DNA of 64,000 nt, taken from positions 124,001 to 188,000 of the forward strand of contig JAIXWF010000019.1 of the NCBI GenBank assembly GCA_027482185.1, in the 5' to 3' direction. Position 1 is the first letter of the stretch. Every line of letters begins with the position of its first letter. The notes beneath the pieces were generated by a model. That model was not told where the DNA came from and searched no databases. It worked only from the letters and a program-made list of their open reading frames with translations. Made by a program: the position numbers and the translations under genes. This DNA comes from Opitutaceae bacterium. GTDB taxonomy: Bacteria > Verrucomicrobiota > Verrucomicrobiia > Opitutales > Opitutaceae. Of the stretch, positions 1,546 through 59,935 are shown piece after piece.

Positions 1546-1620
1546 AGTTGAGGGTTGAGTGCTGAGAGTTGAGAGATCGGATGCTCCGCCTCTCGACTCT
1601 CAACTCAGTACTCTCAACTC
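1546..1620. repeat. Heptamer-array inverted repeat, junction 1
   Basis: Left arm (about 1546-1576) is built from GTTGAG/GTTGAGA words; right arm (about 1591-1620) is the complementary CTCAACT/TCTCAACTC series. They flank a short core containing ATCGGATGCTCCGCC. The arms can pair imperfectly into a long hairpin. The array fills the spacer between two convergent genes and belongs to the family seen at several other junctions here. Confidence 0.75.
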
Positions 1621-1650
1621 GGAAAAGCGGGCGCTCAGCGCCGCTTTTCC
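1621..1650 (-). terminator. Hairpin overlapping the stop of the c-di-AMP synthase gene
   Basis: GGAAAAGCGG (1621-1630) pairs perfectly with CCGCTTTTCC (1641-1650). Read on the minus strand the hairpin includes the last codons and stop of the upstream gene and ends with a short T-run, so it may act as its terminator. Confidence 0.5.
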
Positions 1651-2978
1651 GTCAGCGGCAGCATCACGCCGCGGCGGAAGAGCGTCACCTGGCCCGTGCT
1701 CGACGAGACCACGATCGAGATGCAGTTGGCCGCGACGCTGATCGCCGCCGCCGCCGCGTGCCGGCTGCCGAGCCCGCTGGGCAACTCGTGCGTGCTGTCC
1801 GTCGCCTGGATCAGGCTGCCGGCGGATTCCACGACGCCGTCGCCGCGGATGATGAAGGCGCCGTCGATCGACGAAAACTCCTTCACCGTCTCGTCCATGA
1901 ACGGATTGAGGATGTTGCGGTCCTCTTCCTTGTAACCGAAAAACGGATTCAGCACGAGCGGCTTGGAGAGGGTGCCGACTTTCTCGTTGTCGCCGACGAC
2001 GAAGAGGCAGCCGACCGGCCGGCCCTCGCGGCCCTCGACGCCGAGTTCCGTCGCCACCGCGATCACGCGCTCCAGCACCTCGGGCTTCACGTCCGCGGGC
2101 AGCAGGTCCGCCGTCGAGCCGGTGAGCAGGGTCTGGAACTCGCGCTCGATGTCCACGACCACGAGCGTGTCGAACTGGTTCGAACCCGTGATGCCGCCGA
2201 CGCAGCAGATGCGGTCGCTGAACGTCACGATCCCGCGCGTGAGCGCCACCAGCATCGCGCTGCGCAGCTGCGCGAGCCGTTGGTTCGAGAACGAACGCAC
2301 CTGGATCGTCTCGGAAAACTCCGTCTGGTCGTCGCTCGTTTCCATCGCCGCGCGCGTCACGAGGATCGTCTTCAGCTTGGAACGCAGCACCCCCGGCTGG
2401 ATGCCGCCGATGAAAGTATCGCCGAAGACCACGATCGCGTTGCAGTCCGCGCCCTGCGCCACGCGTTCGGCCTCGCGAAACATCAGGCGGTTCACGCGGT
2501 TCTGCTGCGCCTCGACGACGCGCATGCCGCCGAAGCCGCCGATCATCCGGTCGTAGAGCGTGTCGAGGTCCGGCGCGTTGACCAGGGTGTCGACGAGGTC
2601 CTTGTCCTTCACCTGCCGCGCGATCGAGGCCAGCACCTGCAGGTAGTCGCGGGCCTGCTCGCCCGCGATCAACATCACGATGAGATGGACGCGCTCGTCG
2701 GCGATCGCGCCGTCGTGCCGGATACCCACGCGGCTGCGGCCGATCGCGAGCACATAGCGGCGCGACATGCGGATGCGCACGTGCGGCAACGCCACGCCGA
2801 AGCCGAGGTACGTCGTCATCGTGCTCTCGCGGGCCAGCAGGCCCTTGAGCAGCGACTCCGGTTTAAGATCGGGGAATTTCTCGACGCAGACGCCGAGCAA
2901 TTCCTGCAGCGCGCCCTCGAGATCGAGACTTTTCAGGTCGACGATGCGGCTCCGGGCGATGATCTTGTCGAGCCGCAT
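1635..2978 (-). CDS. PTS EIIA-type / PK-C-like / DisA_N diadenylate cyclase fusion
   Basis: A 447-residue protein with three domains. Residues ~5-145 resemble a PTS EIIA type-2 (PtsN-like) domain, with the phosphorylatable His in GVALPHVR (His66). Residues ~155-290 resemble the pyruvate-kinase C-terminal-like domain found in archaeal DacZ. Residues ~300-440 are a DisA_N (DAC) domain, which condenses two ATP into cyclic di-AMP, with the DGA motif (DGAFIIRGDG, 372-381) and GLGSRHAAAAAIS (402-414) in place of the canonical G-T-R-H-R motif: the last Arg is Ala. Cytoplasmic, no membrane segment. The combination suggests c-di-AMP synthesis under PTS phosphorylation control. The middle domain is the least certain assignment. 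Follows nuoA after 97 bp. Confidence 0.8.
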   Translation of the reverse strand: MRLDKIIARSRIVDLKSLDLEGALQELLGVCVEKFPDLKPESLLKGLLARESTMTTYLGFGVALPHVRIRMSRRYVLAIGRSRVGIRHDGAIADERVHLIVMLIAGEQARDYLQVLASIARQVKDKDLVDTLVNAPDLDTLYDRMIGGFGGMRVVEAQQNRVNRLMFREAERVAQGADCNAIVVFGDTFIGGIQPGVLRSKLKTILVTRAAMETSDDQTEFSETIQVRSFSNQRLAQLRSAMLVALTRGIVTFSDRICCVGGITGSNQFDTLVVVDIEREFQTLLTGSTADLLPADVKPEVLERVIAVATELGVEGREGRPVGCLFVVGDNEKVGTLSKPLVLNPFFGYKEEDRNILNPFMDETVKEFSSIDGAFIIRGDGVVESAGSLIQATDSTHELPSGLGSRHAAAAAISVAANCISIVVSSSTGQVTLFRRGVMLPLTEKRR

Positions 2979-2990
2979 GTGCTAGCGCGC

Positions 2991-3080
2991 GTGAAGGTGA
3001 AACGGAAAGGGAGAGTGGAGCAGCGGCCGGGAGGCCAAAGTGGCGGTCACTTTCACGCTCACCTTTCCTTGCACTCTACT
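2991..3080. repeat. Degenerate purine/pyrimidine inverted repeat upstream of the cyclase gene
   Basis: Left arm GTGAAGGTGAAACGGAAAGGG (from 2991) and right arm ending near 3080 (TTTCACGCTCACCTTTCCTT) are mutually complementary with mismatches. The word content (GTGAAAG/CTTTCAC) is that of the heptamer arrays elsewhere in the window. It sits in a tandem, not convergent, spacer between nuoA and the cyclase gene, and its right arm reaches the nuoA stop. Confidence 0.5.
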
Positions 3081-3450
3081 TTTCCCACTGCAGCGCGCCC
3101 TTCTTGATTTCGTAAACCAAGCCGAGGATCAGCACGCCGAGGAAGAACGCGATCGGCCCGATGATCGAGATGTTGTTCGCGAGGAATTCCCGGTAGATGA
3201 ACGTCCACGGGATCAAGATCACGACTTCGAGATCGAAAAGCATGAAGAGCAGCGCCGTGAGGTAGAACTTCACCGAGAACCGCGTGTGCACCAGGCCTTC
3301 GGCCGGCACGCCGCACTCGTAGGCGGAATCCTTGATCTTGTTCTTCTTGAAGCGCTGGCCGAAGAGATGGCTCGCGCCGATGACGCCGCCCGTGATGAGG
3401 GCGGCAAGCACCACTTGGATCAAAAAGGGAAGATACGCGGAGGTGGCCAT
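3076..3450 (-). CDS. nuoA: NADH-quinone oxidoreductase subunit A
   Basis: A 124-residue inner-membrane subunit of respiratory complex I, the usual length for NuoA/NdhC. Three hydrophobic helices (about residues 5-28, 62-84 and 93-115) are evident. Family hallmarks are the loop DSAYECGVPAEG (41-52), with the conserved Y-E-C-G around the quinone-site Cys, and FYLTALLFMLFDLEVV (62-77), with the acidic residues in the second helix. The gene is odd in context: nuoB and the rest of the operon do not follow; the next gene downstream is the diadenylate cyclase and the one upstream is a DUF362-like protein. Confidence 0.93.
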   Translation of the reverse strand: MATSAYLPFLIQVVLAALITGGVIGASHLFGQRFKKNKIKDSAYECGVPAEGLVHTRFSVKFYLTALLFMLFDLEVVILIPWTFIYREFLANNISIIGPIAFFLGVLILGLVYEIKKGALQWEK

Positions 3451-3541
3451 GACGGACGTTCCCGATCACTTGGGCGCAGCCCCGCCGCCGCGGCAAGAGG
3501 GAATTTGGGGCGGCGGACCGTCCGGCGCCCAACCTGCCGCT

Positions 3542-4591
3542 TCAATCCACCGGAATGATCCGCGCCGTCTTCGTCTTCGTCGAACCGACGCCGAGCGTCT
3601 CGGCGAATTCCAGCGTCCGGATCTCCTCGTCGAGCACCTCGAAGCCGGACTTCTTGCGGTGGCCGTTGATCCGGTCGCGCGCCAAGGCGTCGAGCATGAC
3701 CGGGTCCGTGCTCAGCCACATGATGGGCTCGGAAACCGTGTAGAGCGAATTGAAGAACGGGCCGCCGATGAACTGGTAGTGCTGCAGGCTCGCCAGCGTG
3801 AACATCCAGGTCTGGCGCAATTCGGGAATCGCGCTCATTTCCGCGACGGCCGCGGGCGCGTTGGCCGGCGAGCGGAAGAAACGCGCGGTGTTCGACGCGT
3901 TCCACAGGGTCGCGTTCACGAGGGCGCCGTTGATGCCCAGCGTCGGATGGTCCGTGTAGACCGGCAAATTGATCCAGAAATCGGAATCGAGGAACAGCGG
4001 CGTCGCCAGGAAGCTCTTGCGGTCCTCGTCCTTCGTCGACGTCGGCGACACGCCCTTCGTTTGCTGCTCCGCGAAGATCGGGTCGAAGCGCTGCGGGAGC
4101 GGCGAATCGTAGAACCACAGCGGGTCGTAGAACCGGCCCGATTCGAGCACGTAGACCGGATTGCCCGCAAACGGCGTCTCGCCCGACACCAGCGACGGCA
4201 GGTAACCCGTCATGCGCAGGCGCAGGGCATTCAACCCGACGAGAAAGATTTCCCGGTTCTCGAAACCGCGTTTGCGCAGCGCCGCGATCACCCCCTTGAC
4301 CAACGGCAGCGGCGTCGCGAGGCCCGGACCGGAGTCCGCGTAAATCTTCAGACCGACGCGGCGCTTGGGCCCGGGGACCAGTTTCTTCCCGGTCTCGCGC
4401 TCGAAGGTCGCGATCATCGCCTCGACCGCCTGCTGGTACGCGAGCTCGTCGAAGCCGGCGAGTTTCGTCTGCCACACCGGCTCGGGGCGCGCGACCGCCG
4501 GCGTCGTCGGGGCGGTCGTGGCGGCGGGGGCGGAAGCCGCACGGGCGGCGGAAAGCCCCAGCAACAGGAGCGAGAGGGTGAACAGGCGCAT
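3542..4591 (-). CDS. Secreted DUF362-like protein
   Basis: A 349-residue exported protein with a signal peptide (MRLFTLSLLLLGLSAARA, cleavage near residue 18-20) followed by an Ala/Pro/Thr linker. The body has the layout of DUF362 proteins: VGLKIYADSGPG in the first strand, a PLVKGVIAALRKRGF helix, GINGALVNATLWNASN in the middle, and WLSTDPVMLDALARDRI near the C-terminus, corresponding to the family's S-T-D-P-V-x-x-D element. No Cys-rich ferredoxin motif is visible. Function unknown; DUF362 proteins often act in cofactor or redox-linked reactions. The longer open frame overlaps dnaG, so the ATG at 4591 opening the signal peptide was chosen. Divergent from dnaG. Confidence 0.6.
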   Translation of the reverse strand: MRLFTLSLLLLGLSAARAASAPAATTAPTTPAVARPEPVWQTKLAGFDELAYQQAVEAMIATFERETGKKLVPGPKRRVGLKIYADSGPGLATPLPLVKGVIAALRKRGFENREIFLVGLNALRLRMTGYLPSLVSGETPFAGNPVYVLESGRFYDPLWFYDSPLPQRFDPIFAEQQTKGVSPTSTKDEDRKSFLATPLFLDSDFWINLPVYTDHPTLGINGALVNATLWNASNTARFFRSPANAPAAVAEMSAIPELRQTWMFTLASLQHYQFIGGPFFNSLYTVSEPIMWLSTDPVMLDALARDRINGHRKKSGFEVLDEEIRTLEFAETLGVGSTKTKTARIIPVD

Positions 4592-4784
4592 GCGGGATTG
4601 GTCGTCTTCCGGGGAACGAAGTTTCCTCGGGGCCGCGAAACTTTGGGCGGCAACCCCCGCCCGGCAATGCCTTTTGTCGGATTGGCCGCGCTTCCTCGCG
4701 GACGTTGACAGCCCCCGCGCCGCACCGAATGTCCCCGTTCCGGTGCCGCGCGGTCCCCGCTCCGCGGCGTCGGCCGGCCGCTCC

Positions 4785-6698
4785 ATGCCCGTCATCAAGC
4801 CCACCTGCATTCGTGACCTGAAACTCCGCGTGAACCTCGCGGACGTCGTCGGCCGCGTGGTCACGTTGCGCAAGGCCGGCGGCGCGCGGCTCAAGGGGCT
4901 CTGCCCGTTTCACAACGAAAAGACGCCGTCGTTCCACGTCGATGCCGATAAAGGTTTCTACAAGTGCTTCGGCTGCGGCAAAGCCGGCGACCTCATCACC
5001 TTCGTCCGCGACACCGAGCAGCTGAACTTTTCCGAAGCCGTCGAGGCCCTCGGCAAACGCTTCGGCATCGTCATCGAGTACGAGGAAGGCTCCGGCGGCC
5101 CCTCGCACGAGGAGCGCTCGCTGCGCCAGGAAATCTTCGATCTCCACGACGTCGCCGCGGAGCATTTCCACCAGGCCTTCCGCGCGACCGACGCCGCCGG
5201 GACGTTTTTCCGCACGTATTGGACCGAGAAACGCCGTTTCCCGATGGAAATTGCCGACGAGTTCAAGATCGGCGGCGTCGACGCCCAAGGCGGCGGCCTC
5301 GGGGCAGCGTTGCTCCGGCGCAAATTCTCCGAGGAAGCGCTGCGGCGCTGCGGACTGTTCTTCATCTACGACGACGCCGCGATCACGCTCCACGCGCTGC
5401 GCCCGCGTTTCCGCGGCCGGCTCATGATCCCGATCCGCGACCACCAGAGTCGCGTCGTCGCGTTCACCGCCCGCCAGACCGACCTCACGCCCGCCGACGA
5501 TCCCGCGCGCGAAGCCAAGTACGTCAACTCGCCCGAGACGCCGATCTTCACCAAGGGCAATCTGCTCTTCAATTTGGACCGCGCGCGCACCGCCGTCGGC
5601 GAAGGGAAACCGTTCGTGATGGTCGAGGGCCAACTAGACGCCCTCCGCTGCTGGAGCGTCGGCCTGAAAACCGCCATCGCCCCGCAGGGCACCTCGATCA
5701 CCGAAAGCCAACTCGTTTTGCTCCGCCGCTACCACTCGCAGGTCGAGTGCTTCTTCGACAGCGACAGCGCCGGCCAGAAGGCCGCCCTGCGCTTTTTGCC
5801 GATGGCTTTGAAAGCCGGGCTAGAGATCCGTTTTCTCACGCTCGCCGGCGCCGAGAAACTCGATCCCGACCTGCTGTTTCTCGAACGCGGCCTCGCCGGC
5901 TACGAGGACGTGCGCCGCGGCGCCCAGACCGCCATGGCCTTCGCCTGCAAGGCCGCGCTGCCCGATCCGTTCAACAGCACCGCGGAAACCAAATCCCGCG
6001 CCGCTCAGATTCTCTTCGAGGTCATCTCCGCCAGCGAAAGCGAAGTCACCCGCGCGGAATTCATCAAGGAAGCCGCCAACCACCTGCGGCTCTCCCCGCT
6101 CGCGGCCCAGAAGGATTTCCAGACCTTCCTCGCCCGCCAAAGCCGCCAAGCCGCCGCCCGCCCCGCGCCCACTGCCGACGATCCCGATTCCTCAACCCAG
6201 AACTCCAAACTCCAAACCTCCGGCAGCGCCGGCACCGGCGCCGCCGCCGGCGGCGCCCAGACTCCCGAGCACCACTTGCTCTTGCTTCTGTTGCATTTCG
6301 AAAAGCTCGGCCCGCCCCTCAGCCACGGCCTGCCCCACGATTGGATCGACACCTCCCACCCCGCCGGCGTCCTTCTCAATCGCTTCCTTGGCGAATTCGA
6401 ACAGAACGCCTGGCCGGGCCGCGACCACCTCGACGGTTTGCTCGAGTCCGACGCCGAACGCGCCCTCGTCGCCAACCTCCTGTTCGAAGCCCCCGCCGTC
6501 GAGGATCCGGTCAAGGTCGCGCAGGAGGGAATGAAGCAGCTCCGCGCCCGGGCTTTGGAGCCCCGCCTGCGGCAAATAGAACTTGCTTTGGCCAACCCCG
6601 ATGCGGACAGTGAATCTGACCCAATTTCTCTCTTGAAAGAACGTTCAGAACTGCAACGCCAGCTCCGCGCGCCGCTCGTCCTCGCGGCCGTGGCCTGA
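4785..6698 (+). CDS. dnaG: DNA primase
   Basis: DnaG makes RNA primers for replication; 637 residues, usual length. The N-terminal CHC2 zinc finger is complete: Cys40, His43, Cys61 and Cys64 ([11 protein letters not shown] ... [11 protein letters not shown]). The catalytic core and TOPRIM domain follow, with [12 protein letters not shown] and [13 protein letters not shown] giving the E...DxD metal-binding acids. The C-terminal helicase-interacting region starts after ~480. The linker before it ([16 protein letters not shown], about codons 466-481) is low-complexity, and its DNA resembles one arm of the intergenic heptamer arrays. A perfect TTGACA at 4705-4710 with a C-rich spacer is a possible -35, but no convincing -10 follows. 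rpoD follows after 46 bp. Confidence 0.96.
6186..6222 (+). repeat. Heptamer-array arm inside dnaG
   Basis: The stretch ATTCCTCAACCC, AGAACTCCAAACTCC, AAACCTCC consists of the CAACC/ACTCCAA-type words seen in the intergenic arrays but lies in frame within dnaG, encoding a Ser/Thr/Gln-rich linker. No complementary second arm is evident nearby. Confidence 0.4.
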
Positions 6699-6709
6699 TC
6701 CCGTCCGCG

Positions 6710-6738
6710 TTTGCCGTTCCCTTCGGTCGCCCTTAACT
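6710..6738 (+). promoter_or_regulatory. Candidate rpoD promoter
   Basis: TTTGCC (6710-6715), a 17-bp spacer, then TTAACT (6733-6738), only 6 bp before the rpoD ATG at 6745. A transcript from here would start at or next to the initiation codon. Lies in the dnaG-rpoD spacer. Confidence 0.4.
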
Positions 6739-6744
6739 TCTTCC

Positions 6745-8646
<1,902 letters not shown>

Positions 8647-8686
8647 GCGGCGCAACGCGTCGGACGGCGGACGCCGGATCCTGTCG

Positions 8687-8712
8687 ACCCTCAAAGCTCA
8701 GCTCTCAGCCCC
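8687..8712 (+). repeat. Single heptamer-array arm between rpoD and the lipoprotein gene
   Basis: ACCCTCAAAGCTCAGCTCTCAG is a short run of CTCA/CTCAG words like one arm of the larger arrays. No partner arm is visible. Confidence 0.35.
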
Positions 8713-8722
8713 GTCCGATCCC

Positions 8723-9109
8723 ATGAAGCTCGCCGCCACCGTGCCCGTCTCGCTGGCGGCGATTTTGTTTTTCTCCGGTTGCCGCACGCGCCCGGCACCC
8801 ATCCCGCCCGCCGCCGTCGCCCCGGCCGCCGTCCCCGATCTCAGCGGCCGCCTCGCGCCCAGCCCGCGCCTGATCGTCGGCCGCATCTTCGCCCTCGATC
8901 CCGCGCAGGGCTTCGCGTTTGTCGATCTCGGCGCCGACGCCCCCGCCGCCGCCTTGGTCAACGGCACCGAACTCATCGTCCGCACCCTCGACCTCCGCGA
9001 AACCGGCCGGCTCGTCGCGTCGAGCCATCTCCGCGGCCGCACGCTCGGCACCCGCATCGCGGCCGGCGCGCCGCAGGTCGGCGACGAAGTCGTGTGGCTC
9101 GCGCCGTGA
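8723..9109 (+). CDS. Small hypothetical lipoprotein
   Basis: A 128-residue predicted lipoprotein. The N-terminus MKLAATVPVSLAAILFFSGC has a Lys, a hydrophobic stretch and a lipobox ending at Cys20 (F-S-G-C), followed by an Ala/Pro-rich tether (residues 22-37). The mature domain (about 48-128) contains RLIVGRIFALDPAQGFAFV and ends in QVGDEVVWLAP, suggesting a small beta-barrel or OB-like fold, with 'GDEVVW' recalling curved-strand modules that report on protein or cell-envelope state. No family is recognised. It sits between rpoD and tatA on the same strand. Confidence 0.65.
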   Translation: MKLAATVPVSLAAILFFSGCRTRPAPIPPAAVAPAAVPDLSGRLAPSPRLIVGRIFALDPAQGFAFVDLGADAPAAALVNGTELIVRTLDLRETGRLVASSHLRGRTLGTRIAAGAPQVGDEVVWLAP

Positions 9110-24708: not shown

Positions 24709-24727
24709 CGGCGGCCAAGGGCCGCCG
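24709..24727 (+). terminator. GC hairpin immediately after the NTF2-like gene
   Basis: CGGCGGCC (24709-24716), loop AAG, GGCCGCCG (24720-24727): a perfect 8-bp stem starting at the base after the TAA stop. No T-tract; read as a possible terminator or 3'-end-stabilising hairpin. Confidence 0.5.
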
Positions 24728-24730
24728 CGG

Positions 24731-24829
24731 AGCTGTCAGCTGTCAGCCGTCAGCGCCGAATTCGGAACTCCGCTCGGTGTCCGGCTGATCGCTAATGACT
24801 GATCGCTGAACGCCGACAGCCTTCAGCTC
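24731..24829. repeat. Heptamer-array inverted repeat, junction 2
   Basis: Left arm 24731-24755 is three tandem copies of a CTGTCAG/CCGTCAG word; right arm 24784-24829 is a series of CTGATCG/CTGACTG/CTGAACG words ending CTTCAGCTC. The arms are only partly complementary. It fills the convergent junction between the NTF2-like gene and the phosphorylase gene, and its right end is 2 bp from the phosphorylase stop. Confidence 0.65.
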
Positions 24830-24830
24830 C

Positions 24831-27280: not shown

Positions 27281-27297
27281 TTTGCCCTGCGGGCAAA
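27281..27297 (+). terminator. Short hairpin after the acetylxylan esterase gene
   Basis: TTTGCCC (27281-27287), loop TGC, GGGCAAA (27291-27297): perfect 7-bp stem one base after the stop codon, without a T-tract. Confidence 0.45.
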
Positions 27298-27301: not shown

Positions 27302-27403
27302 GGAAGTTGAAGGTTGAAAGTTGAAGATCGGAAAAGCAGCAGCAGCCCCGACCGACTTCGGCACGGGCTCCTGTCTCTCAACTCTCATTTCTCAACTCTC
27401 ATC
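27302..27403. repeat. Heptamer-array inverted repeat, junction 3
   Basis: Left arm 27302-27330 is GTTGAAG/GTTGAAA words; right arm 27372-27403 is TCTCAACTCTCATTTCTCAA words. They surround a core of about 42 bp (GATCGG ... CGACTTCGGCACGGG) resembling the core of the 35.8-kb copy. The two arms use different dialects (GAAA versus GAGA), so pairing is imperfect. Confidence 0.7.
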
Positions 27404-35797: not shown

Positions 35798-35815
35798 GCC
35801 GCCGCCGGCGGCGGC
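35798..35815 (+). terminator. GC palindrome immediately after the oxidoreductase A gene
   Basis: GCCGCCGCC directly followed by GGCGGCGGC, one base after the TGA stop. No T-tract; it runs into the repeat array that fills the junction. Confidence 0.35.
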
Positions 35816-35940
35816 GGCCGGTTGAAAGGTGAAAGTTGAAGGTTGAAAGTCTGAGATTCGCGCAGCGGAAACGGCCCGGGGCGGCGTGATCGTCCGACTT
35901 CGATCCTTTCAACTTTCACCCTTCAACTTTCAACCGGCCG
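35815..35940. repeat. Heptamer-array inverted repeat, junction 4 (best-formed copy)
   Basis: The most regular copy. The outer 14 bp CGGCCGGTTGAAAG (35815-35828) and CTTTCAACCGGCCG (35927-35940) are perfect complements; inside lie tandem GTTGAAA/GGTGAAA/GTTGAAG words opposed by TTTCAAC/TTTCACC/CTTCAAC words. The core of ~50-60 bp includes GATTCGCGCAGCGG and GTCCGACTTCGAT. It fills the convergent spacer between oxidoreductase A and the MBL gene. Confidence 0.85.
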
Positions 35941-35950
35941 TCTGCGGCCG
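35935..35950 (-). terminator. Short GC hairpin beside the MBL gene
   Basis: CGGCCG (35935-35940), loop TCTG, CGGCCG (35945-35950). Its left arm is also the end of the repeat array. It lies 22 bp beyond the MBL stop on the minus strand. Confidence 0.3.
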
Positions 35951-35972
35951 CCATGGCCACCCGCGGCCTCCG

Positions 35973-38716: not shown

Positions 38717-38755
38717 GCGGGGCCGCGGCCCCGCACGGTTTGGGGTTTTGTGTTT
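38717..38755 (+). terminator. GC palindrome and T-rich stretch after the sulfatase gene
   Basis: GCGGGGCCG/CGGCCCCGC is an 18-bp perfect palindrome (38717-38734) followed by ACGGTTTGGGGTTTTGTGTTTT, 6 bp after the TAG stop. A plausible but non-canonical terminator. Confidence 0.5.
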
Positions 38756-38774
38756 TGGGTTCCGGGTGGAACGG

Positions 38775-38910
38775 GAAGCTCTAAGCTCTCGGCTCTCAGC
38801 GTTCAGCAGTCAGCGTTCAGTTCTCCGGTTTCCGGTCTCCGCATTCCGGTCTCGGCACCTCCGGTCTCCGCATTCCGGTTTCGGAAAAATCCGCACTCCG
38901 CAATCCGCAA
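38775..38910. repeat. Heptamer-type array, junction 5
   Basis: Runs of CTCTAAGCTCTCGGCTCTCAG, CGTTCAGCAGTCAGCGTTCAG and CATTCCGGTCTCGG/CTCCGGTCTCCG, then CACTCCGCAATCCGCAA. This copy is built from other word dialects (TCAGC, TCCGGT, TCCGCA) with no clear complementary second arm. It fills the convergent junction between the sulfatase and oxidoreductase B genes; the CAATCCGCAAT end resembles the GAATTGC words at 59.9 kb. Confidence 0.55.
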
Positions 38911-38911
38911 T

Positions 38912-38939
38912 AAAAAAAGCCCCGCGTTGCCGCGGGGCT
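38912..38939 (-). terminator. Intrinsic terminator of oxidoreductase B
   Basis: On the minus strand AGCCCCGCG pairs with CGCGGGGCT (arms 38931-38939 and 38918-38926, 4-base loop), followed by a run of seven T (38912-38918 read as A on plus). Canonical rho-independent terminator, ~28 bp after the minus-strand stop. Confidence 0.9.
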
Positions 38940-38967
38940 CGAAAGGAAGGAATCGCGGCAACCGCGC

Positions 38968-51465: not shown

Positions 51466-51490
51466 GCGCGCGGCGCAAGGCGCCGCGCGC
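51466..51490 (+). terminator. Strong GC hairpin directly after the TonB receptor gene
   Basis: GCGCGCGGCGC (51466-51476), loop AAG, GCGCCGCGCGC (51480-51490): 11 perfect pairs immediately after TGA. Same AAG loop as the hairpin after the NTF2-like gene. No T-tract. Confidence 0.6.
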
Positions 51491-51575
51491 GGTTGAAAGG
51501 TGAAAGTTCCAAGTTGAAAGACGGGAGTCGCCGCCGGACTCCGAGGAGCGGTTTCGTTCTTTCAACTTTCAACCG
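51491..51575. repeat. Heptamer-array inverted repeat, junction 6
   Basis: Left arm GGTTGAAAGGTGAAAGTTCC plus AAGTTGAAAG (51491-51520); right arm TCTTTCAACTTTCAACC (51558-51574). The outer 9-10 bp pair well, then the left arm is interrupted by TTCC. Core ~37 bp, with a perfect internal dyad AGTCGCC/GGACT-like element. Lies between the convergent TonB receptor and LuxR genes. Confidence 0.75.
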
Positions 51576-51580
51576 CCGGC

Positions 51581-51599
51581 CGGACCGCTGCGCGGTCCG
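51581..51599 (-). terminator. Hairpin at the 3' end of the LuxR gene
   Basis: CGGACCG (51581-51587), loop CTGCG, CGGTCCG (51593-51599): perfect 7-bp stem 5 bp beyond the minus-strand stop of the LuxR gene, with no T-tract. Confidence 0.4.
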
Positions 51600-51604
51600 T
51601 CCGG

Positions 51605-52744: not shown

Positions 52745-52805
52745 GGCCGCGCAGCATGCGCCGCCGCCCGCCGCCGTCAAACGGCCGCCGCGCCCCGCCC
52801 CGCGT

Positions 52806-54413: not shown

Positions 54414-54536
54414 CTCCGCGAGCGTGCAAGCCGAGCCCCGGCCCGCAGCAAAAAACCATGGCACCAAGGTGGTAATCCCGCCCCTGGGGAAGTTTTCGCT
54501 TTGGCCCGGCGTCCGCCCGTGGCTGACTGGCCGCCG

Positions 54537-55520
54537 ATGCCGCTCCGTCTTGCCCTGCTCGCCGCCCTGCTCGCTGCCGCGACCGGCCCGGCCCTGCGCG
54601 CCGCGGACTACACCTACTACCTCACGGGCAATGCGGCCGACGTTCGGCCGGCCCGGACCTCCGGCGGTCTGCTGCTCATGGGCGGCGGCGGCGATGTCGA
54701 CGACGCCTTCCGCTGGTTCGTGCGCCAGGCCGGCGGCGGCGACATCGTCGTGCTCCGCGCCTCCGGCGCCGACGGCTACAACGACTACATTTTTTCCAAG
54801 ATCGGCGGCGTCGATTCCGTGGAAACAATCCTGTTCCACAACCGCGCCGCGGCCGACGACCCGAAGGTGCTCGCCGTCATCCGCGCCGCCGACGGCATCT
54901 GGTTGGCCGGCGGGGACCAATCCCGCTACGTCGATTACTGGAAAGGCAACGCCGTCGGCGCCGCCCTCGACGCCCACGTCCGCGCCGGCAAGCCGCTCGG
55001 CGGCACCAGCGCCGGCCTCGCCGTGCTGGGCGAGTTTGTGTTTTCGGCTTCGGAAACCGGCAGCCTCACCTCCGAGATCGCGTTGCGCGATCCCTTCGAC
55101 CGGCGCCTCACGCTCGAGCGCGATTTCCTGCACCTCGATCTGCTCCGCGGCGTGATCACGGATTCGCACTTCATGCCGCGCCGCCGGCTCGGCCGCTCGC
55201 TCGCGTTCCTCGCCCGGCTCATGGCGGGCCGCACCGGCGACCGCCTCGTCGGCATCGGCGTCGACGAAAAAACCGCCCTCGCGGTCGAGGCCGACGGCCG
55301 CGCCCGGGTCTTTTCCTCCGACCCCGCCGCGCGCGTGTGGCTGATGCTGCCCACGCGCCCCGCGGAGGTGCTCGCGTCCGGCCAACCGCTCACGCTCCGC
55401 GACGTCCGGCTCATCGCGCTCGGCCGCGAGAGCACCGTCGATTTGCCGAAACTTGCCGTCGACAAACCGGCCGCCGTCTCCGTCGTATCCGTGATCGCCG
55501 GACAACTTTCCCCGCCATGA
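54537..55520 (+). CDS. Secreted cyanophycinase-like peptidase (S51)
   Basis: A 327-residue exported peptidase of family S51. Signal peptide MPLRLALLAALLAAATGPALRA, then GLLLMGGGGDVDDAFRWFV, DIVVLRASGADGYNDYIF, DGIWLAGGDQSRYVDYW and PLGGTSAGLAVLGEFVF, which holds the nucleophile Ser in the G-G-T-S-A-G elbow, followed by FDRRLTLERDFLHLD (Asp/His region). Cyanophycinases cut the arginyl-polyaspartate storage polymer into beta-Asp-Arg dipeptides; being secreted, this one would act on polymer from outside. It overlaps the M20 peptidase gene by 4 bp (ATGA). Confidence 0.87.
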   Translation: MPLRLALLAALLAAATGPALRAADYTYYLTGNAADVRPARTSGGLLLMGGGGDVDDAFRWFVRQAGGGDIVVLRASGADGYNDYIFSKIGGVDSVETILFHNRAAADDPKVLAVIRAADGIWLAGGDQSRYVDYWKGNAVGAALDAHVRAGKPLGGTSAGLAVLGEFVFSASETGSLTSEIALRDPFDRRLTLERDFLHLDLLRGVITDSHFMPRRRLGRSLAFLARLMAGRTGDRLVGIGVDEKTALAVEADGRARVFSSDPAARVWLMLPTRPAEVLASGQPLTLRDVRLIALGRESTVDLPKLAVDKPAAVSVVSVIAGQLSPP

Positions 55521-56698
55521 CCCTGCCTCCTGCCATCGCCCGCCTGTCCGAACGGACGGCGGAATTCGGCGCCCTGCTCGTGAAGTGGGCCGAGATCAAT
55601 TCCGGCTCCGGCCACCGCGCCGGCCTCGACCGGATGCGCGCCGCGTTGCGCGAGGAATTCGGCCGCCTGCCCGGCGTCACGGTGGAAGAACTCCCCTGCC
55701 CCGGCACGGCCGACGCCCTCCGCATCAGCGTCCGGCCCGAGGCCAAGACGCGCATCTTGCTCAACGGCCATTTCGACACCGTCTACGAGGCCGACGACCC
55801 GTTCCAGCGCTGCACCTGGCTCACGCCCGAGCGCCTCAACGGCCCGGGCACCGCCGACATGAAGGGCGGCCTGCTCACGATGCTCGCGGCGCTCCAGGCC
55901 TTCGAGCAGACGCCGCACGCGGCCAATCTCGGCTGGGACGCCCTGCTCACACCCGACGAAGAAACGGGTTCCCACGGCAGCCGGCAGCTCTTTGTCGACG
56001 CGCCGAAGCGCGTGCACTTCGCGCTGATCTTCGAACCCGCGCGGCCCAACGGCGACATCGTGCATTCGCGCAAGGGCACCGGCGGCCTGGTCGCCACGTG
56101 CCGCGGCCGAGCCTCCCACGCCGCCAAGATCCCGAACGACGGCCGCAACGCCATCTTGGCCCTGGCGGAATTCCTCCTCGCCGCAAGCAAGGTCCCGCAG
56201 GATCTCCCCGGCACCCTCGTCAACGTCGGCAACATCCGCGGCGGCGGCCCCGCCACCAACGTCGTGCCCGACTTCGCGGAAGCGGAACTCGATTTGCGCA
56301 TCACCAAGGTCTCCGACCGCGAACCGCTGCTCGCCCGACTCCAGGCCCTCGCCGACACGGTCAACGCCCGCGAAGGCTTCAAGTTGGAGCTGAAGGGCGG
56401 CTTCAACCGGCCGCCGAAGGAATGCTTCCCGATCGAGGAAAAGCTTTTCCCGCTTTGGCAACAGGCCGCCCGCGACGTCGGCATCGCCCCGCCGAATTGG
56501 GTCCACACCGGCGGCGCCTCCGACGGCAATCTGCTCGCCGTGGCGGGACTGCCGAGCTTCGACGGCGTCGGCCCCATCGGCGACGGCCTGCACAGCAACC
56601 GCGAATTCCTGATCGTCCCGACGATCGCGCAGCGCGCCCAAGTCGTCGCCCTGTTTCTCCACCGCGTCGCCGCGGGCGAGATCAGCGTGAAACCGTAA
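55517..56698 (+). CDS. M20 family metallopeptidase (CPG2-like)
   Basis: A 393-residue peptidase of the M20 family, close to carboxypeptidase G2/ArgE type. Zinc-binding and catalytic elements are present: ILLNGHFDTVYEADDP (metal-binding His, then Asp), GPGTADMKGGL (bridging Asp), TPDEETGSHGS (catalytic Glu), EPARPNGDIVHSRKGTGG and GASDGNLLAVAGLPSFDG (C-terminal His ligand region). No signal peptide; cytoplasmic. The 4-bp overlap with the cyanophycinase-like gene suggests that it hydrolyses small peptides, possibly those released by it. Convergent with the Ldh-type gene, only 21 bp apart. Confidence 0.9.
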   Translation: MTLPPAIARLSERTAEFGALLVKWAEINSGSGHRAGLDRMRAALREEFGRLPGVTVEELPCPGTADALRISVRPEAKTRILLNGHFDTVYEADDPFQRCTWLTPERLNGPGTADMKGGLLTMLAALQAFEQTPHAANLGWDALLTPDEETGSHGSRQLFVDAPKRVHFALIFEPARPNGDIVHSRKGTGGLVATCRGRASHAAKIPNDGRNAILALAEFLLAASKVPQDLPGTLVNVGNIRGGGPATNVVPDFAEAELDLRITKVSDREPLLARLQALADTVNAREGFKLELKGGFNRPPKECFPIEEKLFPLWQQAARDVGIAPPNWVHTGGASDGNLLAVAGLPSFDGVGPIGDGLHSNREFLIVPTIAQRAQVVALFLHRVAAGEISVKP

Positions 56699-56719
56699 AA
56701 CGGATACGCCGCCGGGAAC

Positions 56720-57766
56720 TCAGCCCGGCAGCGCGACGCCGAGCTTCGCCGCCCACGGTTGCAACGCCGGCATGATGCCGGGGTGCAACGCCACGCCCTC
56801 GGCCAATTGCCGGCGGCGCAATTGCAGGCCCGCTTCGCCGGGCAAACGCACGCGTTCGACGCCGGGCCGCGGCGGCGTCGTGCGACACGTTTCGGCCAAC
56901 TGCTCGGTCTGCCGGCGAAACGCTTCCATGCCGCCGAACAACGCCGGATCGTAAACCTGTACCCACACCGACGCGCCCCAGCCCTCTCCGGGATCCGCGC
57001 GGCCGTGGCCCGCCAACGCGCCGGTCAAAGTCTCCACCATCAACGCCAGCGCGAAGCCCTTGTGCCCGTGGTCGAGCCCGCCGATCGGCAACAAGGTGCC
57101 CGGCGGATTCGTGCTTAGGATTCCGGGATCGTCGGTCGGTTCGCCGGACGCGGTCAGCGCCCACGTCCCGGGGAATCGCCGACCTTCGCCGTGCAGCCGT
57201 TTGGTCAGGGCGTTGGTCGTGACCGACATCGAGATATCGAAAATCACCGGCTCGCCCGCCGTCGGCCACGCCGCCGCCAACGGATTGGGCGTGAACACGC
57301 CGCGCCGCCCGCCGAACGGCGCCACGCTGCTCACGAACGGATCCGAGCAACTCAGCAAAACGCAAAAGCCCGCCTCGGCCACCGGCCGCAGGTACGCGGC
57401 GAGACAGGCAATGTGGTGGCTGCGCCGGATTGCCACCGTGCAACTGCCCTGGGTGCGCGCCCGCGCCATCGCCGTCTCCAACGCCTTCACCGTCAACCAA
57501 GGCCCCGGCAAACGGCGTCCGTCCCACGTCAACGCCGCCGGAAAATCCGCCACGACCAACGGCTCCCCGCTCTTGGTCATGCCGCCGTTTTCAATCTCGC
57601 CGAGATAAGGCGCGAGCAACGCGAGCCCGTGCGTGGTGTGCCCGAGCAAATCCGCTTCCACCAAGATGTCGGCCACGGCCGCCGCCTTGTCGTCTTCGAG
57701 TCCCGCGCGTTGCAGGAGCTCGCGGGCAAACGTGGACAACGCGGCGGCGGTGGGGCGATCGGCCAT
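56720..57766 (-). CDS. Ldh-family NAD(P)-dependent oxidoreductase
   Basis: A 348-residue malate/L-lactate/sulfolactate dehydrogenase-type enzyme (the YlbC/Ldh2 fold, unrelated to classical MDH). Family motifs: VEADLLGHTTHGLALLAPYL (H-T-T-H-G), GSCTVAIRRSHHIACLAAYL, and PNPLAAAWPTAGEPVIFDISMSVT. The end of the protein contains the conserved LPIGGLDHGHKGFALALMVE. It reduces a keto acid such as oxaloacetate or ureidoglycolate-type substrates with NAD(P)H; the precise one is unknown. A cytoplasmic enzyme, convergent with the M20 peptidase and 47 bp downstream of the TPR/GT-C gene. Confidence 0.9.
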   Translation of the reverse strand: MADRPTAAALSTFARELLQRAGLEDDKAAAVADILVEADLLGHTTHGLALLAPYLGEIENGGMTKSGEPLVVADFPAALTWDGRRLPGPWLTVKALETAMARARTQGSCTVAIRRSHHIACLAAYLRPVAEAGFCVLLSCSDPFVSSVAPFGGRRGVFTPNPLAAAWPTAGEPVIFDISMSVTTNALTKRLHGEGRRFPGTWALTASGEPTDDPGILSTNPPGTLLPIGGLDHGHKGFALALMVETLTGALAGHGRADPGEGWGASVWVQVYDPALFGGMEAFRRQTEQLAETCRTTPPRPGVERVRLPGEAGLQLRRRQLAEGVALHPGIMPALQPWAAKLGVALPG

Positions 57767-57813
57767 GCGCCGGAGCCTGCGGGTCCGCGGCCCGGCGGCA
57801 AGTCGCCGCGGCG

Positions 57814-59844
57814 TCAACGCGCCGCCTCGCGGGCGACCGCCAGATTCTCGAGCAGGCGCGGATCGCCCGGACGCAACCGCAACGCCGCTTCGTAGCTCGC
57901 GAGCGCAGCCCGCGCGTTGCCTTGGGCGAGGAGCACGTTGCCGAGGTTGGCGTGCGCCTCGACGGAATCCGGCCGCCGCCGCGTCGCTTCGCGAAACGCA
58001 TCCGCCGCCGCCGGCCAACGTTCTGCCCGCGCCGCGATCAGCCCGAGCCGCAGGCACGCGGCGAGGTCGGATTGGTCCGCCGCAATTGCCGCGCGGTAAT
58101 GCGTTTCCGCCAAAGCTGGATTTCCTCCGGCCTCGGCGAGCCGGCCCCGTTGAAAATGCGCCGGCGCCAAGTCCGGCTCGAGCCGCAACGCCGCCTGCCA
58201 CGCCTGTTCGGCCTCGGCCGCGCGGCCCAGGCCCGCAAGCGCGATGCCGCGGTTGTAATGCGCGTCCGCGCCCGGCCGCAGCCGCAATGCCGCTTCGAAG
58301 TGCGGCAGGGCCTCCGCCTCGCGCCGCAGCCGGACGAGCGCGGTGCCCAAATTCAAATGCGCGTCGGCGTGCGCCGGCGCGAGCCGCACCGCGTCGGCCA
58401 GGTGCGTCGCCGCCGTTTCCAGCTTCCCCTGCTGCAACGCCGCCACGCCGCGGTTGTAGTGCGCCGACACGTAGTCGGGCGCGAGCGCGAGCGCCCGGGC
58501 GAAGGCCGGATCGGCAAGTTCGTGACGCCCCTGCTGCTGGAACGACCAGCCGAGGTTGTTGTGCGCGCGGGCGTTGTTCGGCCGCTTCGCCGTCGTGTCC
58601 TGCCAGATGCGCACGGGATCGAGGTAGAGTTCGTTGCGGGCATGGCTCGCCAGCCCGAGGGCCGACGCCGCCGCAAACCCGGCCGCGACCGCGACAGCCG
58701 GTGCGCAGCGTCCGATTCCCCAAGCCGCGAGCACCGCCAGCGGCAGCAACGGCAAATACATCCGGTGCTCCGCCATCGTCTGCGTGACAAGCGGCACGAA
58801 GCTCGAACTCGGCGCCAGCAACCCAAAGAACCAGGCCCCGAGGAAACCGAGCCGCGGCCGCCGCACCAACGCCCAGACCGTGCCGCCCAACAGCATCAGC
58901 ACCACCGGTCCCTGCCACCACACCGCGGCCGGCCCGCTCACGATTTCGCGGCCGTAATCGAGCACGAGCGGATGCGGCCAGACCGCGAGTTGCAGGTACA
59001 TCACCAACGCCTGCGCCTGCGTGAGCAGGTAGTCCCAACTCGAAATCCCAAGTCCGAAGCCCGCCGCCACGCCGCGCGAACCGCCGCCGGCCGCCAATAG
59101 CGCCAAAGCAATTCCCGTGGTGGCAATCAACCCGAGGTACAGGCCGCGGCGCGCGCGCCACGCCGCCGCAAATGATCCGGCCAGAAACGCGCGGTCGTAG
59201 AGCAACGCGAGCAACGGTGCCGTCACGGCAATTTCCTTGCTGCCCATGCCAAGGGCGCACGCGGCCACGGCGGCGATCGGCCAACGCCGTTTTCCCGCCG
59301 GCGTCGGTGTCGTCGCCGCCCGAACGAAGGCATACAGCGTCGCCAACACGAAGAATCCGCCGAGCCCCTCCGTGCGTTGCGCGATGCCCGTGACGGTTTC
59401 GGTCTGCAACGGATGCAGCGCCCAGAGCAACGCGGCCAGCCACGCGATCGTCGCAGCCGGGATTGGTTCCACGGCATTGCTCGCAGAATTCCGCAGGACC
59501 AAGGTCCGCCGCACCAAGCCGGCCACGAGCAACGCGGAGGCGGCGTGCAGGAGAATATTGAAGACATGGTACCCGCGCGGCGCTTCGCCGCCCGCGGCGA
59601 AGTTCAACGCGTAGGTCAGGTTGACGATCGGGCGGCCCGTCGTCGTGCCGCCGTCCGCGGGCGGCTGCAGCACGGACCAGGAGCCAAGTTCGCGAATCGT
59701 CGGGTTCGTGAGGACCGCCGCGACGTCATCGAACAAGAACGGCGCCCCGAGCCCGTTGCCGAAAGCCAACGCCACCGCCGCCACAAGCGTGACGGGTTGC
59801 CACCAACGGAATCCGGCGGGGATCGGTGATTGGAGTCGTGGCAT
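57814..59844 (-). CDS. TMTC-like GT-C glycosyltransferase with TPR repeats
   Basis: A 676-residue protein. Residues ~1-400 form about ten membrane helices with the GT-C motif near the start (APFLFDDVAAVLTNPTI, D-D pair) and HPLQTETVTGIAQRTEGLGG (~150-170), as in the TMTC/DUF1736-type O-mannosyltransferase group. Residues ~420-670 are about seven tetratricopeptide repeats with the W-x-x-G/Y-x-x-A pattern (NNARAHNNLGWSFQQQGRHELADPAFARALAL). Such bacterial proteins are widespread but uncharacterised; a role in O-glycosylation of envelope proteins is plausible by homology only. It starts with ATG at 59844, after the repeat array and terminator that lie downstream of the TonB receptor. Confidence 0.8.
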   Translation of the reverse strand: MPRLQSPIPAGFRWWQPVTLVAAVALAFGNGLGAPFLFDDVAAVLTNPTIRELGSWSVLQPPADGGTTTGRPIVNLTYALNFAAGGEAPRGYHVFNILLHAASALLVAGLVRRTLVLRNSASNAVEPIPAATIAWLAALLWALHPLQTETVTGIAQRTEGLGGFFVLATLYAFVRAATTPTPAGKRRWPIAAVAACALGMGSKEIAVTAPLLALLYDRAFLAGSFAAAWRARRGLYLGLIATTGIALALLAAGGGSRGVAAGFGLGISSWDYLLTQAQALVMYLQLAVWPHPLVLDYGREIVSGPAAVWWQGPVVLMLLGGTVWALVRRPRLGFLGAWFFGLLAPSSSFVPLVTQTMAEHRMYLPLLPLAVLAAWGIGRCAPAVAVAAGFAAASALGLASHARNELYLDPVRIWQDTTAKRPNNARAHNNLGWSFQQQGRHELADPAFARALALAPDYVSAHYNRGVAALQQGKLETAATHLADAVRLAPAHADAHLNLGTALVRLRREAEALPHFEAALRLRPGADAHYNRGIALAGLGRAAEAEQAWQAALRLEPDLAPAHFQRGRLAEAGGNPALAETHYRAAIAADQSDLAACLRLGLIAARAERWPAAADAFREATRRRPDSVEAHANLGNVLLAQGNARAALASYEAALRLRPGDPRLLENLAVAREAAR

Positions 59845-59861
59845 GGCAGCGACGGGCGGGG

Positions 59862-59935
59862 AATTGCGAATTGCGGATTGCGAATTGCCGAACGTCGACT
59901 CCGGAACGCTGATCGCTGATCGCTTAAAGCTTTCA
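59862..59935. repeat. Heptamer-array, tandem-junction copy
   Basis: GAATTGCGAATTGCGGATTGC and AATTGCCGAACG tandem words (59862-59893), a core TCGACTCCGGAACG, then CTGATCGCTGATCGCTTAA words. Two different dialects face each other, so no perfect arm pairing. It sits between the terminator of the TonB gene and the TMTC-like gene on the same strand. Confidence 0.6.

What the first reader, a model, noticed from the sequence alone, without database searches (positions are those of the whole stretch)
1546..59935. Arrays of 7-8 bp words occupy most convergent gene junctions
Counting convergent gene pairs in the window gives ten. Six of them (junctions at 1.5, 24.7, 27.3, 35.8, 38.8 and 51.5 kb) contain arrays of GTTGAAA, GTTGAGA, CTGTCAG, TCCGGT or TCAGC words, usually as two complementary arms around a 35-60 bp core. 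Three of the other four have spacers under 40 bp, and the fourth (tatA/kef) has a canonical terminator. Further copies lie in tandem spacers at 3.0, 8.7 and 59.9 kb. This resembles the heptameric short tandem repeats (STRR) of cyanobacteria in flavour but here it tracks gene ends. I know of no description of it for this group, though I cannot check the literature. It could be a bidirectional terminator or mRNA 3'-end element, or a mobile repeat tolerated only there.
Basis: partly seen in the sequence, partly recalled or inferred. Interest (0 to 1): 0.75.

Follow-up and report, generated by a model that had tools for sequence, protein, structure and literature searches.

The report
Heptad hairpin repeats at gene ends
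In a bacterium that is probably of the family Opitutaceae, many genes end next to hairpin-forming DNA built from seven-letter words, and one family of these hairpins looks like a small jumping element that lands, to the letter, on the stop codon of genes, mostly without changing their protein.

Summary
In detail: ten convergent pairs, six with word arrays. In 1.264 Mb (about 20% of the genome) exact 7-bp periodicity marks 32 of 99 convergent, 40 of 397 co-directional and 1 of 126 divergent spacers of 35 bp or more. The G-rich arm starts about 20 nt after the stop codon; the C-rich arm follows. The genome is probably Opitutaceae. New here: a dispersed palindrome of about 155 bp with heptad arms (85 places at 75 bits or more). 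It has a CTNAG target duplication (middle base equal in 26 of 30, shuffled mean 11.6), and in 21 of 24 high-scoring copies not used for the model one end lies exactly on a stop codon. Filled and empty sites in relatives show that it moves, mostly leaving C-termini unchanged. The window's arrays lack its core; they are core-deleted or arm-only relatives at most. A terminator role is only indirect: T-tract terminators at 7 of 56 array junctions against 16 of 43, no covariation in the stems. Closest known: Xanthomonas/Nostoc GGGNATC heptads, MITEs, REPs.

The parts
1533..1628 (.). 1.5 kb junction: inverted heptad arms (1546-1575 and 1590-1619) with short core; best window match to the mobile-element model, core shortened
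   Evidence: 55.6 bits, E 2.8e-14; z -6.0
2994..3075 (.). 3.0 kb tandem spacer: weak GTGAAAG-type arms
   Evidence: sequence, (z -2.0); not flagged by the period-7 detector
8658..8713 (.). 8.7 kb tandem spacer: marginal heptads (GGACGCC-type, then CTCAGCT-type)
   Evidence: z 0.1
24729..24830 (.). 24.7 kb junction: AGCTGTC-type left arm (24729-24755) and GCTGAAG/GCTGTCG-type right arm (24804-24830)
   Evidence: z -5.1; another word at the orthologous junction of G006
24710..24727 (.). short GC hairpin directly after the + gene's stop, no T-tract on the + strand
   Evidence: sequence, fold
27304..27402 (.). 27.3 kb junction: GTTGAAA left arm (27304-27326) and TCTCAAC right arm (27376-27402)
   Evidence: z -2.6
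27281..27297 (.). short GC hairpin TTTGCCC...GGGCAAA between stop and array
   Evidence: sequence, fold; a like hairpin in G006
35804..35951 (.). 35.8 kb junction: outer GC stem plus four heptads per arm around a 56-nt core
   Evidence: 80% complementary arms; 55.2 bits, arms; z -6.0
38737..38912 (.). 38.8 kb junction: several heptad words (GGTTTTG, CTCTAAG, TCCGGTC, AATCCGC) without one palindrome
   Evidence: z -0.7
38917..38940 (-). T-tract terminator-like site of the minus-strand gene at the same junction
51489..51576 (.). 51.5 kb junction: GTTGAAAGGTGAAAG left arm and CTTTCAACTTTCAAC right arm
   Evidence: 94% complementary; z -5.8
51466..51490 (.). short GC hairpin after the + gene's stop
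   Evidence: sequence, fold
51576..51604 (.). short GC hairpin after the minus-strand gene's stop
   Evidence: sequence, fold
59859..59927 (.). 59.9 kb tandem spacer: ATTGCGA and GCTGATC heptads
   Evidence: z -0.6

Best explanation
The arrays are the stems of palindromic interspersed repeats of this genus. One family (here R1) is a non-autonomous, MITE-like element: about 155 bp, inverted ends near CCGGAATCATGCAGTTGAGAG, GTTGARA heptads in both arms, a conserved core of about 70 nt, and a 5-bp target duplication CTNAG (shown). In this genome more than half of the CTNAG sites outside genes are stop-codon contexts, so copies accumulate exactly at stop codons, mostly leave the protein intact, and are purged from genes and promoters (positions and C-termini shown; the selection is inferred). 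The window's arrays are core-deleted or arm-only relatives, or independently expanded words, whose heptads turn over by slippage (inferred). Once in place the long hairpin becomes the 3' end of one or both flanking transcripts and probably helps to end or protect them (inferred; no RNA data).
For: Period-7 and gene-end enrichment, seen in two samples. G-arm before C-arm in 14 of the 16 first-sample spacers that hold both types. R1: 137 matches in G000, 131 distinct places after removing six found on both strands, with only 150 of 8552 first-look candidates scored, so a lower bound; in the genus search, which scored 109 candidates per genome, 108 in G000, 104 in G006, 57-90 in G010, G012, G013 and G025 (weaker, best E 1e-13 to 1e-19) and at most 12 in the other 21 of 27 genomes. 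Stop codon at exactly the predicted base in 21 of 24 copies not used for the model (27 of 30 with the six training copies; the 30 are the best-scoring ones); the 24 lie in 15 convergent, 9 co-directional and 0 divergent places. CTNAG direct repeat: middle base equal in 26 of 30 (shuffled mean 11.6, maximum 20 in 5000), whole pentamer equal in 13 of 30 (shuffled mean 6.7, P 0.0006). CTNAG sites: 132 at stops, 108 elsewhere between genes, 451 coding; 21 of 24 exceeds 132/240, P = 8e-4. Filled/empty pairs: L008 10.7 kb (G000 filled; G006 and G013 empty), L008 11.8 kb (G000 filled, G006 empty), window 47.2 kb and C109 22.4 kb (G006 filled, G000 empty). End pattern: 82 hits, 0 for the reversed control. 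Window 1.5 kb matches R1 with the core shortened.
Against: No core-bearing R1 copy lies in the window. Stops beside arrays without the core show no CTGAG preference (15 of 84 against 70 of 311 without arrays; GTTGARA subset 16 of 60; core-bearing 11 of 22), so their descent from R1 is not shown. Many words (GTTCGGA, CGGAAAC, GCGGATT, GGTTTTG) are not R1 words. No mobilising transposase was found, and transposases were not searched for. At C109 22.4 kb the last residues of the protein differ. Only the L008 10.7 kb site is polarised by a third genome. None of the 15 new convergent copies has a stop at both ends. Arrays in divergent spacers exist: L267 and, by the looser rule, L034.
Confidence: 0.6

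Rival explanations
1. Selected bidirectional 3'-end elements: the hairpins are kept at convergent junctions because they stop or protect transcripts from both sides, with interchangeable sequence; perhaps Rho-assisted through the C-rich, G-poor second arm.
For: T-tract terminators at 7 of 56 junctions with word arrays, 16 of 43 without (P 0.007), 25 of 38 in other Opitutales. Median fold z of array spacers -4.9 (convergent, n 25) and -2.3 (co-directional, n 29) against -0.2 and -0.3 for co-directional and divergent spacers without arrays. At 35.8 kb G000 and G006 have heptad arms and G013 another hairpin between the same two genes. Rho is encoded (514 bits, plus a homologue below the cut-off).
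Against: Convergent spacers without arrays also fold (median z -2.5, n 40; other Opitutales -2.9, n 27), so folding is not special to heptads. G000 junctions without arrays also have fewer T-tract terminators than other Opitutales (16 of 43 against 25 of 38, P 0.014). Stem pairs of the mobile family do not covary (82.3% paired, shuffled 81.9%). Arm match within a locus is above the between-locus mean in only 20 of 44 (P 0.14) and not above cross-species (9 loci, P 0.36). At 38.8 kb a terminator-like site is also present. No RNA data.
Confidence: 0.3
2. Neutral simple-sequence repeats: 7-bp slippage arrays of any word arise everywhere and survive only at gene ends, as suggested for heptamers in other bacteria; no element is involved.
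For: 36 consensus words among 91 arrays; unit-number changes between G000 and G006 (L028 8880, 12811); strict period 7.
Against: Inverted pairs with fixed polarity and a dispersed conserved core with target duplication need more than slippage; array positions are old (13 orthologous junctions with arrays in G000, 11 of them also in G006).
Confidence: 0.25
3. REP/BIME-type elements moved by a RAYT (HUH) transposase.
For: Same habitat between convergent and unidirectional genes, and termini that can supply a stop codon, are described for GTAG REPs, with Opitutus terrae named as rich in them (PMC3733652, passages).
Against: R1 has no GTAG or CGTC end and has a 5-bp duplication on both sides.
Confidence: 0.05
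4. Integron attC sites (7-bp GTTRRRY cores after stop codons).
For: 7-bp boxes, palindrome, position after a stop (definition recalled).
Against: The order of boxes is the reverse: GTTGAGA comes first and TCTCAAC last, and the seventh base is a purine (sequence); several words per arm.
Confidence: 0.01

Closest known systems
GGGNATC heptameric repeats of Xanthomonas and Nostoc (Rehm et al. 2015, PMC4692102)
   Same: 7-bp units, many copies, 70 and 75 close inverted pairs in two Xanthomonas genomes, mostly between genes, few between divergent genes, G-rich strand just after the stop codon (mean 28 nt to the 5' neighbouring gene, 160 nt to the next), conserved junctions with varying length.
   Different: Here many different words in one genome; the commonest (GTTGARA) are not G-quadruplex words; convergent junctions are the favoured place; a core-bearing mobile family with CTNAG duplication is present; other phylum.
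MITEs of bacteria
   Same: Short, non-autonomous, inverted ends, target duplication, dispersed, palindromic.
   Different: One end falls exactly on stop codons; arms made of heptads; no parent transposon found.
GTAG/CGTC REPs (Di Nocera et al. 2013, PMC3733652)
   Same: Gene-end palindromes at convergent and unidirectional junctions; termini may supply a stop codon; reported in Opitutus terrae.
   Different: No GTAG or CGTC tag; direct duplication of the target; about 155 bp.
TAACTGA repeats of Beggiatoaceae (MacGregor 2015, PMC4679880)
   Same: Heptamer direct repeats in many intergenic regions.
   Different: Those lie particularly upstream of start codons, with one indirect repeat among 169 direct sets.

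Membership tests
GGGNATC heptad repeats (Xanthomonas/Nostoc) | 7-bp tandem units | tested here: met
   period 7 in 52 of 435 spacers, 1 after shuffling
GGGNATC heptad repeats (Xanthomonas/Nostoc) | unit GGGNATC able to form G-quadruplexes | tested here: not met
   commonest words GTTGAGA, GTTGAAA, CGGAGTT, CGGAAAC, GCGGATT
GGGNATC heptad repeats (Xanthomonas/Nostoc) | G-rich strand close behind the stop codon, rare in divergent spacers | tested here: met
MITE (R1 sub-family) | dispersed copies with conserved inverted ends | tested here: met
MITE (R1 sub-family) | target-site duplication | tested here: met
   L008 site 1 has CTGAA on both sides
MITE (R1 sub-family) | filled and empty sites | tested here: met
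MITE (R1 sub-family) | mobilised by a parent transposase | tested here: inconclusive
   no pair of single ends at transposon distance seen in the list; transposases were not searched
MITE, for arrays without the core (window's included) | conserved ends and target duplication | tested here: inconclusive
   no CTGAG preference at their stops; only 1.5 kb keeps part of the end; duplication itself not tested on them
REP (GTAG/CGTC) | GTAG or CGTC at one end | tested here: not met
   R1 ends CT[G/C]AGCCGG
Rho-independent terminator | hairpin followed by a T-tract | tested here: not met
   simple rule met at 7 of 56 word-array junctions
Known RNA family | match in Rfam | tested here: not met
   0 matches at gathering scores in window, L195, L200
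Integron attC | RYYYAAC first, GTTRRRY last | tested here: not met
   order reversed (definition recalled)
Functional terminator / 3'-end element | RNA 3' ends in or just after the hairpin | not testable with these tools
   no RNA data held

The most novel reading that the evidence does not exclude
In this genus the ending of convergent transcripts has largely been taken over by mobile and expandable palindromes: small elements that seek the stop-codon context CTNAG land behind genes, replace ordinary T-tract terminators, and are swapped among unrelated hairpin families at the same junction while position and strand polarity stay fixed.
Probability: 0.22. Interest if true: 0.8.

Novelty: new variant of a known kind. 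Interest (0 to 1): 0.56.

Why it matters
Heptameric repeats were described in Xanthomonas and Nostoc in 2015 and their role was left open (PMC4692102). A bacterium of a third phylum shows the same geometry with other words and, in one sub-family, a plain reason for it: an element whose target is a common stop-codon context, so insertion is nearly harmless. That makes the old question testable: do such repeats end transcripts, or do they only survive where they do no damage? It also gives a clean bacterial case of a mobile element with base-exact placement on stop codons.

Tried and rejected
Word-level co-evolution of arms: 24.7 kb looks striking (within 13.8 and 20.2, cross 8.6 and 9.2) but does not generalise (44 spacers of 80-300 bp with core copies left out: mean 12.8 within, 9.7 between, higher within in 20 of 44, P 0.14; 9 orthologous loci, P 0.36). 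Covariation in R1 stems: none above shuffles. Three-frame stop cassette (GTTGAAA holds TGA in a period coprime to 3): dropped, since GTTCGGA, CGGAAAC, GCGGATT and GGTTTTG hold no stop (inspection of the words). Core-less arrays as the same insertion class by CTGAG stops: not supported. Integron attC: rejected by box order. Rfam: nothing. First terminator rule: trend only (convergent 4 of 27 against 15 of 46, P 0.11; co-directional 7 of 35 against 36 of 236, P 0.46); the second rule, on both samples and all word families, gave P 0.007 and was written after seeing spacers of the first sample. Convergent-junction folding is not special to heptads, and in the second G000 sample the convergent-divergent difference was weak (P 0.057, n 22 and 31). 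The reversed-pattern control for GTTGAAA is useless because the reversed word is a rotation of the word. Passages of PMC4666352 (triplex repeats) and PMC4853749 (Thiomargarita MITEs) were read and not used.

Limits. Gene calls come from a home-made caller, not from an annotation; starts are less certain than stops. Arrays with equal G and C were left out of the polarity counts (3 co-directional and 1 convergent in the first sample; at least two in the second). The 30 R1 loci are the best-scoring ones, not a random draw. R1 counts are lower bounds because the search scores a limited number of candidates. Matches of R1 at low scores are arms only. 'R1-like' is a pattern rule, not the model. In 80 rpoD-neighbourhood loci of other bacteria period-7 hits occur in 8 loci, one of which (L072) is hit at every period, against 51 hits in 864 kb here. 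The 38 terminator-comparison junctions come from those of 23 chosen rpoD loci with G+C above 57%, include a few very long spacers and two near-identical loci, L054 and L084. The literature listings are weak negatives: one search held 751 papers with noisy terms and showed 12; one tardigrade-transposon paper holds the word CTNAG (listing only).


Full report
What was checked. The window lies in a 6.43-Mb assembly of 24 contigs. The best rpoD relatives by name are Opitutae, among them Opitutus and Opitutaceae of the Verrucomicrobiota, so the genome is probably Opitutaceae; the window carries a sulfatase, GFO/IDH/MocA oxidoreductases and TonB-dependent receptors.

Is it more than chance? I took 40 stretches of 20 kb at regular steps plus the window (864 kb) and scored spacers of at least 35 bp for tandem periodicity. 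Period 7 was found in 52 of 435 spacers; one shuffle of each gave 1; periods 4-6, 8-13 and 15-17 gave 0 to 7; period 14 (two heptads) 31. By type: 24 of 73 convergent, 28 of 271 co-directional, 0 of 91 divergent. A second sample of 400 kb, fetched later and scored with the same rule, gave 8 of 26, 12 of 126 and 1 of 35. Together: convergent 32 of 99, co-directional 40 of 397, divergent 1 of 126; convergent against divergent P = 3e-12. By a looser rule the first sample has one divergent array too (L034).

Anatomy. The 91 arrays of the first sample (looser rule) have 36 consensus words; the commonest are GTTGAGA (16), GTTGAAA (8), CGGAGTT (7), CGGAAAC (6) and GCGGATT (5). Strand polarity is fixed. 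Arrays richer in G lie in the stop-side half of co-directional spacers in 20 of 21 cases, arrays richer in C in 9 of 28; for convergent spacers, read from the left gene, 17 of 19 and 5 of 18. Spacers with both types show G before C in 14 and C before G in 2. The second sample agrees: 10 of 10 against 2 of 10, and 7 of 8 against 1 of 6. G-type arrays start a median of 19 nt (co-directional) and 24 nt (convergent) after the stop codon in the first sample, 11.5 and 26.5 nt in the second. At 24.7, 27.3, 35.8 and 51.5 kb a short GC-rich hairpin lies between a stop codon and the array, and at the last three a second one on the other side. Array spacers fold far better than shuffles (median z -4.9 convergent, n 25; -2.3 co-directional, n 29), while co-directional and divergent spacers without arrays do not (-0.2, -0.3); convergent spacers without arrays also do (-2.5, n 40).

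A mobile family with heptad arms. Reading the convergent spacers that the detector had missed showed a repeated core. A profile seeded with it found 15 places in the 864 kb; I dropped one weak, poorly aligned hit (L020), leaving 14. Fifteen aligned copies (13 of these 14, and two from G006) give an element of about 155 bp: inverted ends CCGGAATCATGCAGTTGAGAG and its partner, heptads GTTGAGAGTTGAAAGTTGAGGG, a core beginning GATCGATCCGCCGAG and holding GAACCGAACGGTT, and a C-rich second arm. A covariance model (R1) finds 137 matches in the genome, six of them the second strand of the same place, 85 places at 75 bits or more (counted by eye; 150 of 8552 candidates were scored). In the genus search (27 genomes with G000, 109 candidates scored each) 20 have a match, but only G000, G006, G013, G012, G010 and G025 have more than 12; outside G000 and G006 the matches are weaker.

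It sits on stop codons. From the alignment the stop codon should occupy model positions 3-5 (or 156-158). Of the 30 best copies, fetched with flanks, six had been used for the model. In 21 of the other 24 a neighbouring gene's stop lies at exactly that base (27 of 30 in all); the three misses are L196, L210 and L224. Of the 24, 15 are convergent, 9 co-directional, none divergent, and none of the 15 has stops at both ends. The pentamer at the stop is repeated in direct orientation at the other end: CTGAG with CTGAG, CTCAG with CTCAG, CTTAG with CTTAG. The middle base agrees in 26 of 30; pairing ends at random gives a mean of 11.6 and never more than 20 in 5000 trials; the whole pentamer agrees in 13 of 30 against 6.7. 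A palindrome kept for folding would show complements, not equal bases, so I read this as a target-site duplication. CTNAG occurs 691 times in the 864 kb: 451 in genes, 132 at stop codons, 108 elsewhere between genes. If genes are closed to insertion, stops are already the main open target; 21 of 24 is somewhat more than 132 of 240 (P = 8e-4), which may mean selection against other intergenic sites or a longer target.

Filled and empty sites. G006 matches at about 83-93% in syntenic blocks. In L008 the copy at 10.7 kb is absent from G006 and from G013, where the two convergent genes are 5 bp apart; the protein end reads VLVTKR, VLVTKR and GLVTTR, and the G000 copy is flanked by CTGAA on both sides. 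The copy at 11.8 kb is absent from G006 and the protein end is unchanged. G006 has a copy at C109 22.4 kb where G000 has none; there the last residues differ. At window 47.2 kb G006 has a copy and G000 none, with protein ends INGGVYSA and INGGVYAA; at window 30.2 kb G006 has a related but poorer copy and G000 a 30-bp spacer. The family has therefore moved since these species parted; only the 10.7 kb site is polarised by a third genome. A search for its ends gave 82 places against 0 for the reversed pattern; reading the list, three ends (C18:119234, C19:701097, C19:749918) lie outside R1 matches and no pair of single ends at transposon distance was seen. Transposases were not searched for.

How the window's arrays relate. 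None carries the R1 core. The 1.5 kb junction matches R1 from end to end with most of the core missing (55.6 bits, E 2.8e-14); 35.8 kb matches on arms (55.2 bits), 51.5 and 27.3 kb weakly. Against a simple descent, stops next to core-less arrays are not enriched for CTGAG (15 of 84 against 70 of 311; core-bearing 11 of 22), and several words are not R1 words. Between G000 and G006, 48 of 67 spacers could be paired; of these 13 have arrays in G000, 13 in G006 and 11 in both. At 24.7 kb the word is AGCTGTC in G000 and GCGGTAA in G006 between the same genes; behind the same right-hand gene G013 has ATGGGTC heptads and G010 an unrelated long inverted repeat, but there the other neighbour was not shown to be the same gene. 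At 35.8 kb, between the same two genes, G013 has a GCGGACG-type hairpin instead of heptads. Such swaps are suggestive, but the general test of arm-to-arm co-evolution failed.

Does it end transcription? Indirect signs only. In 132 convergent junctions: heptad array 37, R1-like by pattern 10, other word arrays 9, T-tract terminator only 16, none of these 27, spacer under 35 bp 33. T-tract terminators occur at 7 of 56 junctions with word arrays and 16 of 43 without (P = 0.007). In other Opitutales, near rpoD, 25 of 38 convergent junctions have one, against 23 of 99 in G000 (P = 6e-6) and 16 of 43 in G000 junctions without arrays (P = 0.014), so part of the shortage is not due to arrays. These rules were written after seeing part of the data. 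Rho is encoded, with a second homologue below the curated cut-off. Against selection for an RNA structure: the R1 stems show no compensatory change beyond shuffles.

Comparison with what is known. Rehm et al. 2015 (PMC4692102; abstract and sections 10, 13, 15 and 16 read) describe GGGNATC heptads in Xanthomonas and Nostoc with 70 and 75 close inverted pairs in two Xanthomonas genomes, few copies between divergent genes, and the G-rich strand close behind stop codons (28 nt on average to the 5' neighbour, 160 nt to the next gene); they looked at transcript ends and left the role open. That is the closest match in kind and geometry. Di Nocera et al. 2013 (PMC3733652; passages) describe REPs between convergent and unidirectional genes, say that GTAG ends often supply a stop codon, and name Opitutus terrae as rich in them; R1 lacks their tag and has a target duplication. 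MacGregor 2015 (PMC4679880; passages) describes TAACTGA heptads, particularly before start codons. Searches for heptamer or palindromic repeats in Verrucomicrobia or Opitutaceae and for CTNAG duplications gave no description of this family in the listings; the library lacks most subscription journals.

Verdict. The thing is best read as a set of gene-end palindromes with heptad stems, one family of which is a mobile element that lands on stop codons; a terminator role is plausible and untested. New variant of a known kind.

Noticed in passing
L004, L011, L014, L027, L028, L030 gene ends; L011:15466-15629, L011:8619-8821: Other word families at gene ends with longer periods: CACAGAGGACACGGAGG, CACTGATGGGCACTGATGG, ATGGGACGGATGGGAC, GGACAGGA. 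A simple pattern for the CACAGAGG type hits 12 spacers in the two samples, forward copy first in 6 of the 6 that hold both arms.
   Followed up: partly
G000:C3:1161578-1162810 and G000:C3:1053167-1054276: Two Rho-like genes, one in a 764-residue frame (514 bits) and one in a 434-residue frame (419 bits, below the curated cut-off).
   Followed up: no
window 1635-2978, minus strand: Protein with an N-terminal PTS IIA (PtsN-like) match and a C-terminal diadenylate cyclase (DacZ-like) match, both below curated cut-offs.
   Followed up: no
G006 contigs C69, C105 (starts) and C65, C121 (ends): CGGAGTT heptad arrays lie at contig ends, so assemblies of this genus probably break at long arrays.
   Followed up: no
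L267:431-708: The only array in a divergent spacer of the second sample: many GCTGAGA heptads mixed with other words near a contig start.
   Followed up: no
L181, L191, L188 (G013, G001): Convergent junctions of relatives carry other gene-end palindromes such as GTAGGCGGGGTGCCCCCACCCCGC, which look like the GTAG REPs described for Opitutus terrae.
   Followed up: no
L011:10366-10579: A one-armed array of about 8-bp words (GGAAAATC, GGGAAAGC), also present in G006.
   Followed up: no
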